From the NCBI RefSeq assembly GCF_021172045.1, contig NZ_CP087164.1:3162001-3226000 (forward strand): a stretch of DNA of 64,000 bases. Direction: 5' to 3'. The stretch is from Capillimicrobium parvum. GTDB lineage: Bacteria > Actinomycetota > Thermoleophilia > Solirubrobacterales > Solirubrobacteraceae. Each line of letters begins with the position of its first letter. Position 1 is the stretch's first letter. Position numbers and translations under genes: made by a program. This document shows, in pieces, positions 39,324 to 45,095 of the stretch. The notes under the pieces are model-generated. The model was given only the letters and a program-made list of their open reading frames with translations. It did not search any database and was not told where the DNA came from.

Positions 39324-39380
39324 CAGTATCTCAGCGTCAGCGGCCGAGTGACTGCCGCCCGCGCGTTACCGTCGGATTCG

Positions 39381-41507
39381 ATGACCGTCCCGGCTGATCC
39401 GGCACCCGCGCTCGCCGTCGAGGTGGCGCGCGTGCGCTACCAGGCCGACGACGGCGACTTCGCCGTGCTCGACGCGGTCACCGACGACGGCGAGGCGGTC
39501 GTGGTGTGCGGCCCGCTCGCGCACATCCACGCGGGCGACGCCATGGAGGTCCGCGGGACGTGGCGCGAGCATCCGCGGCACGGCCGCCAGTTCCACGTGA
39601 GCGCCGTGCGGGTGGCCGAGCCGAGCACCGACGCCGCGCTGCTGGCCGTGCTCGCGGCGGTCAAGCACGTCGGGCCGGCGGGCGCCGCGTACCTGCTCGA
39701 CCGCCACGGCGCGAGCGTCCTCGACGTCGTCGATGCCGACCCTCACGCCCGGCTGCGCGAGGTCCCGGGCATCGGGCCGATCCGGATCGCGCCGGCCGTC
39801 GAGTCCTGGCGCGAGGCGCGGTCGCTACGCGCGGTGCGCCTCTTCCTCGACGCCCACGGCGTGCCCGCGGCGGCGGCCAGCCGGGTGCTGCGCGCACTGG
39901 GCGCCGACGCGGTCGACGTGCTCACGGTCGACCCGTACCGCCTCTGCGAGCTCGACGGGGTCGGCTTCGCGACGGCCGACGCGCTGGCCCTCGCGCTCGG
40001 CGTCGGGCCCGACGACCCGCGCCGCCTGGCGGCGGGCGTCGCGCACGCGCTGCGCGAGGCGGAGTCCGACGGGCACTGCCACCTGCCGGCCGCCGAGCTG
40101 CGCGCTCGGGCCCGGCGGCTCCTCGACGCCGATCCGGCGGGGGCGATCGAGCAGCTCGCCGCCGCGGGCGCCGTCGTGGTGGAGGGCGACCGGGTCGCCG
40201 ACGCGCGTCTGCACCGCATCGAGCAGCGGCTCGCGCAGCGGGTGCGGGCGCTCCTGGACGCCGATCCGGCCCACGACGGCCCGGCACCCGAGCGGCCCGG
40301 CGGCGGCGCCTTCGTGCCCACCGACGCGCAGTGGGCGGCGATCCAGCGCGCGCTCGCGGGGCGCCTGTCGATCCTCACCGGCGGCCCCGGGGTCGGCAAG
40401 ACCGCGACGCTGCGCGCGCTCGTGGACGTCGTGCACGCCCGCCGGCTGTCGGCGCGCCTGTGCGCGCCGACCGGCAAGGCCGCGCGCCGGATGGCCGAGG
40501 CGACCGGCGCCGAGGCCTCGACGATCCACCGGCTGCTCGGCTGGCAGCCCGGCGCCGGCTTCGTCCACGGGCCCGAGGACCCGATCCCCGGCGCGGACGT
40601 CCTCATCGTCGACGAGGCGTCCATGCTCGACGTCCGGCTCGCCGGCGCGCTGTTCGGCGCGGTCGGCGACGCGACGCACGTCGTGCTCGTCGGCGATCCC
40701 GACCAGCTCGCCCCGGTCGGCCCCGGCCGCGTGCTCGACGACCTCATCGCCTCCGAGGAGGTCCCGCTCACCCGGCTGACCGAGGTGTTCCGCCAGGCCG
40801 CGCGGTCGCTCATCGTCCGCGCCGCGCACGCGATCAACGAGGGCCGCCCGCCCCCACGCGAGATCCCCGGCGACGTCGATCGCGACTTCTACTTCGTCGC
40901 CCGCGATCGCGCGGACGAGATCTTCGCCGAGGTCGTCTCGCTCGCCGCCGACCGCCTGCCCGGGCACCTGGGGCTCGACCCGCGCGCCGACGTGCAGGTG
41001 CTCGCGCCGATGCACCGTGGCCCCGTCGGCATCGAGGCGCTCAACGACGCGCTGCGCGCACGACTGAACCCGGACGGCGAGCCGATCCCGGGCACCGGCC
41101 TACGGGTGGGCGACCGCGTGGTGCAGACCCGCAACGACCATGAGCGCCAGCTCATGAACGGCGAGATCGGCGTGATCGCCGCCCACGACCGCGACGCCGC
41201 CGAGACGCTGCTCGCCACCGACGACGGCCGGATGATCGCCCTGCCGGCGGGCGCGCTGGAGACCCTGCGCCCGGCGCATGCGATGTCGGTGCACAAGGCG
41301 CAGGGCAGCTCGGCGCCGGCGGTCGTCGTCCCGATCTTCTCGGGCCATCACGTCATGCTCACGCGCAACCTCGTCTACACCGCACTCACCCGGGCCGAGC
41401 GCATGGCGGTCTTCGTGGGCGAGCGGCGGGCGCTCGAGCTCGCGCTGCGGCGCGTCGACGCCCGGCGCCGGCACACCCGGCTGGCCGAGCTCGTCCGCGA
41501 GGGGTGA
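39381..41507 (+). CDS. recD2: RecD2-type DNA helicase
   Basis: 708 residues. N-terminal OB/HHH region (YQADDGDFAVLDAV, and hairpin LREVPGIGPIRIAPAV) distinguishes it from RecD of RecBCD; motor domains follow with Walker A TGGPGVGKTATL near 333-343, Walker B LIVDEASMLD, VGDPDQLAPVGPGR, and motif VI-like SVHKAQGSSAP and YTALTRAERM. RecD2 is a 5'-3' helicase tied to DNA repair in bacteria lacking RecBC. ATG 39381 is preferred; a GTG 11 codons earlier would overlap the dapA promoter. The 3' end is partly duplicated downstream. Confidence 0.92.
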   Translation: MTVPADPAPALAVEVARVRYQADDGDFAVLDAVTDDGEAVVVCGPLAHIHAGDAMEVRGTWREHPRHGRQFHVSAVRVAEPSTDAALLAVLAAVKHVGPAGAAYLLDRHGASVLDVVDADPHARLREVPGIGPIRIAPAVESWREARSLRAVRLFLDAHGVPAAAASRVLRALGADAVDVLTVDPYRLCELDGVGFATADALALALGVGPDDPRRLAAGVAHALREAESDGHCHLPAAELRARARRLLDADPAGAIEQLAAAGAVVVEGDRVADARLHRIEQRLAQRVRALLDADPAHDGPAPERPGGGAFVPTDAQWAAIQRALAGRLSILTGGPGVGKTATLRALVDVVHARRLSARLCAPTGKAARRMAEATGAEASTIHRLLGWQPGAGFVHGPEDPIPGADVLIVDEASMLDVRLAGALFGAVGDATHVVLVGDPDQLAPVGPGRVLDDLIASEEVPLTRLTEVFRQAARSLIVRAAHAINEGRPPPREIPGDVDRDFYFVARDRADEIFAEVVSLAADRLPGHLGLDPRADVQVLAPMHRGPVGIEALNDALRARLNPDGEPIPGTGLRVGDRVVQTRNDHERQLMNGEIGVIAAHDRDAAETLLATDDGRMIALPAGALETLRPAHAMSVHKAQGSSAPAVVVPIFSGHHVMLTRNLVYTALTRAERMAVFVGERRALELALRRVDARRRHTRLAELVREG

Positions 41508-41583
41508 CCGCACCTCCGGCGGGAGTGGGCTCTCGCCGTCGCGTGGCCGAGCTCGTCCGCGAGGGGTGACCGCACCTCCGGCG
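41483..41583. repeat. 62-bp-spaced tandem duplication of the recD2 3' end
   Basis: A 39-bp block covering the last codons and stop of recD2 (from GGCCGAGCTCG to CCTCCGGCG) at 41483-41521 is repeated exactly at 41545-41583. The start-to-start distance is 62 bp. The second copy is outside any gene and encodes a second, useless LAELVREG-stop. It is followed by the convergent RDD gene end at 41629. Confidence 0.85.
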
Positions 41584-41628
41584 CGGGTGAGGGCCCATCC
41601 ATTCCGTGGCCCGCCCTGCCGCGCCGCT

Positions 41629-42216
41629 CTAGCGGCGGGTCCGGCGCGGGGGCGCGACGGTGCGGATCGGCGGCTCGGCCGCGACGTCGGCGACGATCGT
41701 GCCCGAGAGACGGTCGTGCAGCGCACGACGCCGCCCGTCGAACAGGATCAGGAGGAAGCCGGTGCAGAGCAGCAGCGCGGAGAGCACCAGGCCGAGCATC
41801 CGCCCGAACGCGCGCCGCGGCTTGATGGGCTGACCCGTCGCGACCTCGACGACGCGGATGCGCATGAGCCGGTTGCCCGGGGTCTGCCCGGTCGTCGACC
41901 AGAAGAAGCAGAAGTAGGACGCGGTCCAGACCAGTGCGATGCCGGCGCCGATGACGAGCAGGACGTCCTTCACGCTGCTCGGCAGGCTGAGCAGCGAGAG
42001 GCACAGCGTGACGATCGCCGCGACGAACCAGCCGACGACGTTGATGACGATCGCGTCGGCGGCAAAGGCCAGTGTGCGGGTCGCCAGCCCGGCATACGGG
42101 CCGGTCACCACCACCACGGGCTCGGCGACAGGGGGCGCACGGGTCGTCGCGAGCGCGACCGGGGCGGCGCCGGGCACCGGCTGCGCGGGCGGCACCGGAG
42201 GTACGGTCGCGCTCAT
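41629..42216 (-). CDS. RDD-family membrane protein
   Basis: 195 residues. A proline-rich cytoplasmic N-terminus, then an RDD domain of three predicted membrane spans: AGLATRTLAFAADAIVINVVG (with the Arg and Asp of the name), LLVIGAGIALVWTASYFCFF, and a span after the STTGQTPGNRLMRIRV motif (LGLVLSALLLCTGFLLILF). It ends in a basic tail with RRALHDRLSGTIV. RDD proteins are small membrane proteins of mostly unknown function. Its ATG overlaps the stop of the upstream 13-residue repeat protein by 4 bp (ATGA), so the two are translated together. Confidence 0.88.
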   Translation of the reverse strand: MSATVPPVPPAQPVPGAAPVALATTRAPPVAEPVVVVTGPYAGLATRTLAFAADAIVINVVGWFVAAIVTLCLSLLSLPSSVKDVLLVIGAGIALVWTASYFCFFWSTTGQTPGNRLMRIRVVEVATGQPIKPRRAFGRMLGLVLSALLLCTGFLLILFDGRRRALHDRLSGTIVADVAAEPPIRTVAPPRRTRR

Positions 42217-43448
42217 CCGGCCTCCGTGGTCCGGGCCCCGTCGCGCCGCCGCAGGACGCGGCGCGCCACGGCCTCCATCCAGGCGTCGGCGTTGCGAGAG
42301 CGGCCGCGAACCTCGCCGGCGACCTGGTCGGCGAAGCCCATGCCCTGCTGGGTGATCGCGGCGGTGATGGCCGGGCTGGCCGCGACCTCGTCGATCAGCG
42401 TCCACAGGCCCTGGCTCGCGGCGAGCCGGACGGTGACGTCCTCGAGGATCCGCGTCAGGAGCTCGTCGGTCAGCCGGCTCTCGAGCGCGCGGTCCAGCAG
42501 GCGCTGCATGCCCGGTGAGTCGAGCGCCTCGGCCAGCAGCCGTTCGGTGCCCGGCGAGTCGAGCGCCCCCACCACGAGACGCTGCGCGCCCGCGGACTCG
42601 AGCATCTCGGCGAGCAGCCGCTGCATGCCCGGTGAGTCGAGCGCCTCGGCCAGCAGCCGCTCGGTGCCCGGCGAGTCGAGCGCGCCCGCGACCAGACGCT
42701 GCGCGCCCGCGGATTCCAGCGTCTCGGCGAGCAGCCGCTGCATGGCCGGCGAGTCGAGGGCGTCGCACACGATTCGCTGCATGCCGGGCGAGACCAGCGC
42801 CTGCGACACCATCCGCTGCATGGCCGGCGAGTCGAGGGCGTCGGACACGATTCGCTGCACGCCCGGAGAGTCCAGCGCGCCGGCCACCATCCGCTGCACA
42901 CCCGGAGAGTCCAGCGCGTCCACGACGACCCGCTGCATCCCGGGCGAGTCCAGCGCCCCGGCCACCATCCGCTGCACACCCGGAGAGTCCAGCGCGCCGG
43001 CCACCATCCGCTGCACGCCCGGAGAGTCCAGCGCCCCCGCGACGACCCGTTCCATCCCGGGTGAGTCCAGCACCTCGGCGATCAGGCGCTGCACCGCCGG
43101 CGACTCGAGCGCGCCGCGCATGAGCCGCTCGGCCGCCGGGCTCTCGACCGCGCCGGCGAGGACCGCGTCGATCTGGTCGCTCTCGAGCGTCATCTCGACG
43201 AGCCTGCCGACCTCCGGCCCGCGCAGCAGGCGCTGGGCGCTGCGATCCACGAGCGGGCTCGACACGACGTGGTCGACGACCTCCAGAGCGAAGGACGAGG
43301 CGAGCACGCGGTCGATCGTCACGAGCGTCACGGCCCTCGTCGTCTGGACCGCGGCGTCGCCGACGTTGTCCGCCGCGCGCACGGCGGTGCGGGCCACGCT
43401 GCCCACCAGCCCGCTCCCCGGAACTCGTCTGACGATGTTTCCGACCAC
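42213..43448 (-). CDS. Protein built of tandem 13-residue repeats, unknown function
   Basis: 411 residues, GTG start with GGAGG upstream. From residue 63 to 335 the chain consists of 21 units of 13 residues with pattern [DE]SPG[MVT][QE]RL[LV]AxAL; 17 are clear (102-322), the rest degenerate. Each unit gives one short amphipathic helix capped by SP, so a solenoid or helical rod is likely. A triplet of units (39 residues) is itself duplicated (245-283 and 284-322). The N-terminal 60 residues and C-terminal 70 are not repetitive; no signal peptide or membrane segment is seen. No family was recognised. Paired with an RDD membrane protein. Confidence 0.85.
   Translation of the reverse strand: MVGNIVRRVPGSGLVGSVARTAVRAADNVGDAAVQTTRAVTLVTIDRVLASSFALEVVDHVVSSPLVDRSAQRLLRGPEVGRLVEMTLESDQIDAVLAGAVESPAAERLMRGALESPAVQRLIAEVLDSPGMERVVAGALDSPGVQRMVAGALDSPGVQRMVAGALDSPGMQRVVVDALDSPGVQRMVAGALDSPGVQRIVSDALDSPAMQRMVSQALVSPGMQRIVCDALDSPAMQRLLAETLESAGAQRLVAGALDSPGTERLLAEALDSPGMQRLLAEMLESAGAQRLVVGALDSPGTERLLAEALDSPGMQRLLDRALESRLTDELLTRILEDVTVRLAASQGLWTLIDEVAASPAITAAITQQGMGFADQVAGEVRGRSRNADAWMEAVARRVLRRRDGARTTEAG
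42444..43262. repeat. 39-bp tandem repeat inside the 13-residue-repeat gene
   Basis: The DNA period is 39 bp, 21 units, core 42483-43145. Neighbouring units are often nearly identical at DNA level (for example successive CTGGACTCTCCGGG... type units), so copy number can change by slippage or recombination. A 117-bp higher-order unit (three 39-bp units) is duplicated near the 3' half of the gene. Confidence 0.9.
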
Positions 43449-43471
43449 TCACAGCCTCCTGCCGTCACCAC

Positions 43472-43485
43472 CGACGATACCTTGC
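43472..43485 (-). promoter_or_regulatory. Shared promoter-like motif, copy 1
   Basis: Minus-strand GCAAGGTATCGTCG lies 24 bp upstream of the repeat protein gene. The near-identical GCAAGTATCGTCG occurs upstream of the Usp-like gene (44346-44358). TATCGT fits a TAnnnT -10 element; no convincing -35 is seen at 16-18 bp, so an alternative sigma factor is possible. Confidence 0.35.
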
Positions 43486-43596
43486 GCACGCGTGACAGAC
43501 GACAGGATCGATCCCAGCCTCGCTCGCTCGCCATCGCCGCGGCTCCCGCCGGCGCTGCGGACGGGTCCGTCGCCGCTCTCGATCTTCGAGGACCGA

Positions 43597-43914
43597 TCAG
43601 CTGCGGCGGCGGGGCTCGAGAGCGTCGGTGAAGCGGCGCGGGACGCGCGCCTCGTCGCCCTCCTCCCAGAGGGTGATGACGACGAGCTCGCCGCCGCGCA
43701 CGTCGTGGCGGCAGACGAACACGAGCGAGCGGTCCTCGACATCGGTCACCCGCATCGCGCCGCGCTCGCCCGGCTCGACACGGCCCGCCGCCCACCCGCG
43801 GGCGACGCGCCCCGCGACGTCCGTGCGGGCGTCGAGCGTGCCGCGCACGCGCTGGCGGTACCGGTCGGCGGCGTGGTCGGTGACCGCGACCGTCACCCCG
43901 GGTGGGCTGTTCAC
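43597..43914 (-). CDS. Uncharacterised protein, DUF4258-like
   Basis: 105 residues, GTG start overlapping the stop of the upstream Usp-like gene by 4 bp (GTGA). It opens with AVTDHAADRYRQRVRG, a His-x3-Arg-Tyr-x2-Arg helix, and has a beta-strand tail SLVFVCRHDVRGGELVVITLWEEG. This HxxxRYxxR plus strand pattern resembles the DUF4258/RelE-like RNA-binding fold, but the match is weak and no antitoxin is adjacent. Function unknown. Confidence 0.6.
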   Translation of the reverse strand: MNSPPGVTVAVTDHAADRYRQRVRGTLDARTDVAGRVARGWAAGRVEPGERGAMRVTDVEDRSLVFVCRHDVRGGELVVITLWEEGDEARVPRRFTDALEPRRRS

Positions 43915-44321
43915 CGGCGCACGGCCGCCCGCCGCTCGCTGACCTCGATGTGGCGCACGAGGGCGCCGGTGACCTGCGCGATCCGGTGCGGCAGGTCGCA
44001 GCGCAGCCAGCGCGACAGGTGCTCGGGCAGCGTCACGACGATGATCTCGTCATGGCGCTTGGGGTCGTAGACCTCGAGGACCGCGTGCAGTGGCTCCCCG
44101 TCGCCGGCCACCTGCCCGACCGCCTCGATCCCGATCTCGTGCAGCCGCGCCAGCGCGCCCTCGAGCCGCTCGCGGCCGGCGTCGCGGCCGCCCACCTCGA
44201 GCGGCACGACGAGAGTGACGTGCACGGGACCCGTCCGCGCGCGCTCGCGCAGGTACGAGATGAGCTCACTGGACTCGGCGGTCCGGCTGGCGACGACGAG
44301 CAGATGGGTCGTCCACGGCAT
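43911..44321 (-). CDS. Usp-like alpha/beta protein
   Basis: 136 residues. Starts MPWTTHLLVVASRTAESSEL and has alternating strands and helices, HVTLVVPLEVGG, LARLHEIGIEAVGQVAGD and HDEIIVVTLPEHLSRWLRCDLPHRI, matching the universal stress protein (HUP) fold; the typical ATP-binding G-x2-G-x9-G(S/T) is missing, so it may not bind nucleotide. GAGGAGG precedes the ATG by 5 bp and a promoter-like motif lies at 44346-44358. It overlaps the downstream DUF4258-like gene. Confidence 0.7.
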   Translation of the reverse strand: MPWTTHLLVVASRTAESSELISYLRERARTGPVHVTLVVPLEVGGRDAGRERLEGALARLHEIGIEAVGQVAGDGEPLHAVLEVYDPKRHDEIIVVTLPEHLSRWLRCDLPHRIAQVTGALVRHIEVSERRAAVRR

Positions 44322-44345
44322 GGTGCCTCCTCGTGACGGGCGTCA

Positions 44346-44358
44346 CGACGATACTTGC
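44346..44358 (-). promoter_or_regulatory. Shared promoter-like motif, copy 2
   Basis: Minus-strand GCAAGTATCGTCG, 25 bp upstream of the Usp-like gene start. It differs from the copy at 43472 by a single-base deletion in the run before TATCGT and is followed by the similar sequence GTGACG. The pairing of the two motifs in front of two neighbouring operons suggests shared control. Confidence 0.35.
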
Positions 44359-44423
44359 CCACCCTGTCCGCCAGCGCCACAGTTCAGGTCCTGTTCAGGA
44401 CCGGCGGGTCGCGGAGGCGCGGA

Positions 44424-45095
44424 TCACGAGTCGAACAGCAGGTGCTCGAGGCCCACGACCGGCGACTCGGTCAAGGAGCCGACGCGGCGGACGGCGAGCA
44501 GCACGCCCGGCATGAACGACTCGCGGTCGACCGAGTCGTGGCGGATCGTCAGCGTCTGGCCGACGTCGCCCAGGATGACCTCCTGGTGGGCGACGAGCCC
44601 GGGCAGCCGCACCGAGTGGATCGGGACGTCACCCTGCATCATCTCGGCCGTCCGGGCGGCGGTCCCGCTCGGGGCGTCGAGCTTGCCGTCGTGGTGCAGC
44701 TCGATGATCTCGGCCCGCTTCATCACCCGCGACGCCTCGGCGGCGTAGCGCATCATCAGCACCGCGCCGATCGCGAAGTTGGGCGCGAAGAAGACGTTCG
44801 GCGGATGGTCGAGCCCACGCAGCGGCTCGAGGTCGAAGCTCGAGGTCCCGATGACGACGTGCACGCCGGCCCGCACGCAGGCGAGCGCGTTCGCGGTCGC
44901 CGTGTCGGGCTGCGTGAAGTCGACGACCACGTCGACGTCGCCGAGGATCTCCCCCAGCTCCACGCCCAGCGCCGGGTCCGCCCGGCCGGCGAGCACCATG
45001 TCCTCGGCGCCCTCGATCGCGCGGCACACGGTCTGGCCCATGCGGCCTGCGGCGCCGGCCACGCCGACGCGGATCGGATCGCCGGCGCTGGTCAC
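44424..45095 (-). CDS. dapB: 4-hydroxy-tetrahydrodipicolinate reductase
   Basis: 223 residues, GTG start. NAD(P)H-binding GVAGAAGRMG at 11-20, VVVDFTQPD, and the substrate site ELHHDGKLDAPSGTA with catalytic His134-His135 and Lys138; QTLTIRHDSVDRESF at the C-terminal half. It reduces hydroxytetrahydrodipicolinate in lysine/peptidoglycan precursor synthesis. At 223 residues it is shorter than the E. coli enzyme but complete by motifs. It overlaps the M16 protease gene by 4 bp (GTGA). Confidence 0.95.
   Translation of the reverse strand: MTSAGDPIRVGVAGAAGRMGQTVCRAIEGAEDMVLAGRADPALGVELGEILGDVDVVVDFTQPDTATANALACVRAGVHVVIGTSSFDLEPLRGLDHPPNVFFAPNFAIGAVLMMRYAAEASRVMKRAEIIELHHDGKLDAPSGTAARTAEMMQGDVPIHSVRLPGLVAHQEVILGDVGQTLTIRHDSVDRESFMPGVLLAVRRVGSLTESPVVGLEHLLFDS

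What the first reader, a model, noticed from the sequence alone, without database searches (positions are those of the whole stretch)
42213..43448. A 13-residue tandem repeat protein with an RDD membrane partner
Twenty-one 13-residue units of the form [DE]SPGMQRLLAxAL build most of the 411-residue protein, including a duplicated 39-residue triplet; the DNA repeat is 39 bp and will vary in copy number between strains. It has no signal, membrane segment or recognised family and overlaps an RDD membrane protein by 4 bp. It may form a helical solenoid that a membrane partner tethers. This is the clearest candidate for an undescribed protein system in the window.
Basis: partly seen in the sequence, partly recalled or inferred. 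Interest (0 to 1): 0.65.

Follow-up and report, generated by a model that had tools for sequence, protein, structure and literature searches.

The report
Helical-repeat partner of RDD membrane protein
A bacterium makes a protein built of about 21 short helical repeats that belongs to a family encoded directly beside, or fused to, one type of membrane protein across many actinobacteria, which points to an undescribed two-part membrane complex whose job is still unknown.

Summary
The 411-aa protein (42213-43448, minus strand) carries 15 strong and 6 degenerate 13-residue units, far beyond chance, and overlaps an RDD membrane gene by 4 bp. The protein belongs to a patchy actinobacterial family defined by a conserved C-terminal block, not by the repeats. 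Searches with that block, and then with a related family of 9-residue repeats, kept landing on the same pair: repeat gene upstream of, or fused to, an RDD gene (27 of 27 loci of the 9-mer family). Separate pairs overlap by exactly 4 bp in 25 of 31 cases. Linked RDD proteins stand apart from 13 unlinked RDDs on a tree, and fused and separate forms interchanged about five times. Array length is lineage-specific; the nearest relative lacks about 12 units. No Pfam or NCBIfam family covers it; a GerD hit is repeat-driven. Best reading: a cytosolic alpha-solenoid that binds an RDD membrane protein as an obligate complex. What the complex does is not shown. Side lead: a fold match of RDD to the peroxisomal Pex2/10/12 channel.

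The parts
42213..43448 (-). Gene of the 411-aa tandem-repeat protein (GTG start, TGA stop)
   Evidence: Open frame, codon usage picks this frame, orthologues with the same C-terminal block
43455..43460 (-). Shine-Dalgarno AGGAGG, 6 nt before the GTG
   Evidence: Sequence read upstream of the start
43071..43304 (-). Six degenerate 13-residue units (residues 49-126)
   Evidence: Unit listing in register
42486..43070 (-). Fifteen strong 13-residue units (residues 127-321), 39-bp DNA period with a 117-bp higher period
   Evidence: TRF, autocorrelation, unit statistics, one predicted helix per unit
42216..42485 (-). C-terminal region (residues 322-411) holding the conserved block and a predicted long helix 359-407
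   Evidence: Conserved in orthologues and related to the C-terminus of the 9-residue-repeat family
42213..42216 (-). ATGA overlap of repeat-gene stop and RDD-gene start
   Evidence: Sequence; the same 4-bp overlap in 25 of 31 separate pairs
42221..42225 (-). GGAGG Shine-Dalgarno for the RDD gene, inside the repeat gene
   Evidence: Sequence upstream of the ATG at 42216
41629..42216 (-). Gene of the 195-aa RDD-family membrane protein, three predicted TM segments
   Evidence: Pfam PF06271 85.1 bits; hydropathy; model

Best explanation
The two genes encode the halves of one membrane complex. The repeat protein is a cytosolic alpha-solenoid with one short helix per 13-residue unit. Its conserved C-terminal helix docks it on the cytosolic face of an RDD membrane protein, and the array projects into the cytosol as a docking surface that can change in length. 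I infer that it scaffolds or regulates the RDD protein, as a peripheral subunit of a membrane carrier or sensor would. Shown: family, gene linkage, overlap geometry, fusions, separate clade of linked RDDs, variation in repeat number. Predicted: helical fold and topology. Inferred: direct binding, regulatory or scaffold role, co-translational assembly. The substrate or signal of the RDD protein is unknown.
For: RDD lies directly downstream of or fused to the repeat protein in relatives, at 13 of 14 named loci, the last a contig end, at 16 of 17 loci fetched from C-terminal-profile hits and at 27 of 27 loci of the 9-residue-repeat family, 11 fused. 25 of 31 separate pairs overlap by 4 bp. Fused/separate changes about 5 times on the RDD tree, at least 3 forced. 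The 52 linked RDDs stand apart from 13 unlinked ones (SH-aLRT 94). The two repeat families share the C-terminal block (hhalign E 3.3e-7). One helix per unit and a long C-terminal helix are predicted. No TM segment in the repeat protein. pN/pS among units 0.49.
Against: No interaction was tested. The repeat model has only moderate confidence (pTM 0.39), and no model of the complex was made. The family is patchy: no match in same-genus G003. Orientation in the membrane is inferred from the lack of a signal. The function of RDD proteins is itself unsettled, so the role of a partner is guesswork. A7 was built from loci already seen to have RDD, so the 27 of 27 count is not wholly independent.
Confidence: 0.5

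Rival explanations
1. The repeats are amphipathic helices lying flat on the inner leaflet of the membrane, as in apolipoproteins or LEA proteins, coating or protecting the membrane around the RDD protein.
For: Units of 10-12 helical residues with a hydrophobic side; the model does not fix the overall shape (pTM 0.39). Neighbours in several other genera hint at stress.
Against: The strong array has net charge -9, unlike typical helices that bind anionic membranes; conserved S-P helix starts suggest separate packed helices.
Confidence: 0.15
2. The RDD protein is a cation/proton antiporter like that of Halobacillus andaensis, and the repeat protein is its regulatory subunit.
For: Antiport activity is reported for one RDD protein (PMC5996927). 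R47, D54, R135, R139 and D168 are present in the window RDD.
Against: By motif position, the counterpart of the essential D158 is G172 in the window RDD (inferred, no alignment to that protein was made). The related SppI showed no salt phenotype (PMC7568657).
Confidence: 0.12
3. The long array has no special function: the short ancestral protein does the work, and 39-bp slippage has merely added in-frame units in this lineage.
For: The nearest relative (about 60% identical) has about 12 fewer units and others have few; a 117-bp duplication is recent.
Against: All units are in frame, pN/pS is 0.49 and three positions are invariant; other lineages expanded a different 9-residue unit in the same place.
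Confidence: 0.15
4. It is a relative of the spore germination lipoprotein GerD.
For: Pfam GerD hit of 40.6 bits over a cut-off of 29.5.
Against: The hit lies in the repeats; four orthologues and a 9-mer relative show none; NCBIfam GerD 37.8 bits against a cut-off of 100; the only Cys is residue 228, so no lipoprotein signal.
Confidence: 0.02

Closest known systems
RDD family (Pfam PF06271)
   Same: The downstream protein is a member, with the conserved R and D of the first TM helix and the HD motif.
   Different: Described members (SppI, Halobacillus RDD, Mas1B, VanZ-RDD) have no described helical-repeat partner; the linked RDDs form their own clade here.
VanZ-RDD fusions (PMC12419801)
   Same: RDD as a module fused to a second domain, with a predicted cytoplasm-facing intramembrane site.
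   Different: The partner there is a membrane lipocone domain, here a soluble-looking helical repeat protein.
SppA-SppI pair of Bacillus subtilis (PMC7568657)
   Same: Operon pair of an RDD protein with a partner it binds and controls.
   Different: The partner there is a membrane protease; here it has no protease or any other known domain.
ARM/HEAT/PUF alpha-solenoids
   Same: The predicted arrangement of stacked short helices resembles them (VIA Z up to 10.3 with a designed repeat protein, about 7 with PP2A-B56).
   Different: One helix per 13 residues instead of two or three per 36-42; no sequence relation; the match may be only a common arrangement.

Membership tests
RDD family (PF06271), downstream gene | Profile score above the curated cut-off | tested here: met
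   85.1 bits, cut-off 24.1; all 12 members of A8 match
RDD family (PF06271), downstream gene | Conserved Arg and two Asp of the family | tested here: met
   R47, D54 and D168 invariant in A8
RDD family (PF06271), downstream gene | Three TM segments | tested here: met
   Hydropathy peaks 55-73, 85-103, 141-159
GerD (PF17898 / NF040801), repeat protein | Profile score above cut-off in the protein and in its orthologues | tested here: not met
   Pfam 40.6 over 29.5 only in the window protein's repeats; none in 5 relatives; NCBIfam 37.8 under 100
GerD (PF17898 / NF040801), repeat protein | Lipoprotein signal with N-terminal Cys | tested here: not met
   Only Cys is residue 228
DUF445 (PF04286), repeat protein | Score above curated cut-off | tested here: not met
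   21.2 bits, cut-off 33.8
ARM/HEAT alpha-solenoid fold, repeat protein | Confident structural match over most of the array | tested here: inconclusive
   Foldseek best E 0.058; VIA Z about 6-10 on a model with pTM 0.39
Pex2_Pex12 (PF04757), RDD protein | Score above curated cut-off | tested here: not met
   11.6 bits, cut-off 25.1; 4 of 12 RDDs match weakly, best E 0.057
Pex2_Pex12 (PF04757), RDD protein | Fold of the membrane domain | tested here: inconclusive
   VIA Z 9.6, rmsd 3.8 over 130 residues to 7t92_A, on a moderate model
Sodium/proton antiporter activity of an RDD protein | Cation/proton exchange | not testable with these tools
   Needs vesicle assays; see PMC5996927

The most novel reading that the evidence does not exclude
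The repeat-RDD pair is an actinobacterial membrane machine in which the RDD half shares its fold with the membrane domains of the peroxisomal Pex2/10/12 retrotranslocation channel, and the repeat solenoid is the cytosolic docking arm that presents substrates or effectors to it.
Probability: 0.08. Interest if true: 0.85.

Novelty: new variant of a known kind. Interest (0 to 1): 0.55.

Why it matters
RDD proteins are widespread and their job is disputed. A dedicated, co-encoded partner gives a handle on part of the family: pull-downs, deletions and structures of the pair, or of natural one-chain fusions, can now be designed. The two repeat families have no Pfam or NCBIfam model in the copies searched, so their members are probably filed as hypothetical. 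Growth of 13-residue and 9-residue arrays in the same position is also a clean natural case of repeat-number evolution in a membrane-linked protein.

Tried and rejected
GerD homology: rejected as a repeat-driven match. Weak hits to ribose-phosphate pyrophosphokinase, insect allergen repeat and others: not supported by orthologues or below cut-offs. No Rfam family in 41000-45000. No sigma-70-like promoter or intrinsic terminator by consensus in 41500-44700; not informative for this phylum. The C-terminal-profile hit in G271 (L112), a large protein without RDD nearby, is treated as false. Hits with E near 1e-3 in G057, G092, G115 and G136 look spurious from their frames. PDB sequence searches gave nothing useful. 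Long opposite-strand ORFs are high-GC mirror frames; codon usage picks the 411-aa frame. Paper searches found no description of an RDD-repeat pair; the one hit was not read.

Full report
Observation. The minus-strand ORF 42213-43448 encodes 411 residues from a GTG preceded by AGGAGG. Self-identity at lag 13 is 0.41 (shuffle maximum 0.146) and at lag 39 is 0.435 (shuffle maximum 0.137). Fifteen units from residue 127 to 321 fit L-D-S-P-G-x-Q-R-[LM]-V-A-x-A, with L1, S3 and R8 invariant; six weaker units precede them. TRF reports the 39-bp array and a 117-bp higher period. Among units pN/pS is 0.49, so the protein sequence is under some constraint. The next gene, 41629-42216, overlaps by ATGA and is an RDD protein.

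Family. A search with the whole protein found matches in 13 of 41 genomes, the own one included; some of the weakest are doubtful. Reading the loci shows what is conserved: not the array but a C-terminal block of the form LWxLIDEVAxSPxxxxAIxQQxxGFADQVxxxVRxRSRxADxxxExxARRxLRRR, after a longer N-terminal region and a variable number of units. The nearest relative, of the same genus and about 60% identical, lacks about 12 units. Named loci include Solirubrobacter soli DSM 22325, S. taibaiensis, S. phytolaccae and Conexibacter and Thermoleophilaceae MAGs; two records of that list bear names of other phyla or genera, probably misassigned bins. In the class sample 14 strong hits fall in 149 genomes and same-genus G003 has no match, so the module is patchy.

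Linkage. The RDD gene lies directly downstream of the repeat gene, or in the same reading frame as a fusion, in the relatives, and downstream at 13 of 14 named loci, the last being a contig end. The class and phylum searches used the C-terminal profile only; of 17 loci fetched from their hits, 16 again hold RDD next to or fused with the repeat protein. More distant members have a 9-residue unit such as VDVDAIIRR instead of the 13-residue one. A profile of that type (A7) found 26 of 396 genomes at E 1e-6, and 27 of 27 loci examined hold the RDD partner, 11 of them fused. The two repeat types are related through the C-terminal block (hhalign E 3.3e-7, probability 93, 50 columns). A7 was built from loci already seen to have RDD, so the 27 of 27 count is not wholly independent, but the search itself used no RDD sequence.

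Gene geometry and history. Of 31 separate pairs, 25 overlap by exactly 4 bp; the script picks the start nearest the stop, which favours short distances, but not one fixed value. On an RDD tree the fused or separate label needs 5 changes, at least 3 forced by well supported branches. With 13 RDDs that have no repeat neighbour added, the 52 linked ones stand apart on one branch (SH-aLRT 94). These are quick trees with many open forks, so finer points should not be read from them.

Structure. AlphaFold2 on the window protein with 13 orthologues gave mean pLDDT 72.6 and pTM 0.39: one helix of 10-12 residues per unit, breaks at S-P, an N-terminal helix 13-49 and a C-terminal helix 359-407. Foldseek finds no significant PDB match (best E 0.058); the second look gives Z 10.3 to a designed repeat protein and about 7 to PP2A-B56, which may be only a common arrangement. 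The repeat protein has no TM segment and a net charge of -9 over the strong array. The RDD model (12 sequences, pLDDT 73.5, pTM 0.55) has long helices 44-75 and 80-108 and a third at 133-151.

Known background. RDD proteins have been reported as a Na+(Li+,K+)/H+ antiporter in Halobacillus (PMC5996927), as the SppA-protease inhibitor SppI in B. subtilis, without a salt phenotype (PMC7568657), in Mas1B of mce operons (PMC1810536), and as frequent fusions to VanZ with a predicted intramembrane site facing the cytoplasm (PMC12419801). No paper found describes the repeat partner.

Interpretation. Linkage, overlap geometry, repeated fusions and the separate clade of linked RDDs make a physical complex the most economical reading. 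The repeat domain is cytosolic if fusions keep their N-terminus inside, which the lack of a signal suggests but does not prove. What the complex does is inferred only: scaffold or regulator of an RDD membrane protein. Genes nearby in several other genera (DUF6325, SHOCT, DUF7144, DUF1269, response regulators and others) are not the same in the window and give no firm clue.

Side lead. The RDD model's only plausible PDB matches are the three chains of the peroxisomal Pex2/10/12 channel (Foldseek best E 0.09, probability 0.96; VIA Z 9.6, rmsd 3.8 over 130 residues, 16% identity, next unrelated Z 3.2). Pfam Pex2_Pex12 weakly matches 4 of 12 linked RDDs (best E 0.057). In a search of 198 actinobacterial genomes with that family there were 8 sub-threshold hits, 6 of them inside RDD domains. 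The matched profile regions differ (about 21-83 in those genomes, 134-199 in the window RDD), all scores are below the cut-off, and RDD proteins have no RING finger, so this is a lead and not a shown homology.

Verdict. The follow-up adds that the pair is a recurrent, apparently undescribed module rather than a single odd gene: a new variant of a known kind, namely an RDD membrane protein with a dedicated repeat partner.

Noticed in passing
window 41629-42216 (RDD gene); L162, L163, L164, L165, L168, L169: The RDD model matches the membrane domains of the peroxisomal Pex2/10/12 channel (VIA Z 9.6), and 6 of 8 weak hits of Pfam Pex2_Pex12 in 198 actinobacterial genomes lie inside RDD domains. 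All scores are below the family cut-off and the matched profile regions differ, so homology is not shown.
   Followed up: partly
L062 and L113 (genomes G015 and G070, both genus code g13): Within one genus code, one genome carries the 9-residue repeat type and the other the 13-residue type upstream of RDD, so the two repeat types can replace each other or coexist over short distances.
   Followed up: no
window 41482-41623: A 62-bp direct duplication (2.3 copies) spans the end and stop of the convergent helicase-like gene 39348-41507, just before the RDD gene end.
   Followed up: no
window 43597-43914 and 43911-44321, minus strand: Two small genes upstream on the same strand (105 and 136 aa), overlapping by 4 bp, match no Pfam or NCBIfam family above cut-off.
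   Followed up: no
L051, L108, L120, L123 and other module loci: In several genera the module lies near genes for DUF6325, SHOCT, DUF7144, DUF1269 or response-regulator-like proteins, which may hint at a stress-related setting; the window does not share these neighbours.
   Followed up: partly
L126 and L128: Records titled Chlamydiae bacterium and Bifidobacterium breve carry Solirubrobacterales-like module loci, probably misassigned metagenome bins.
   Followed up: no
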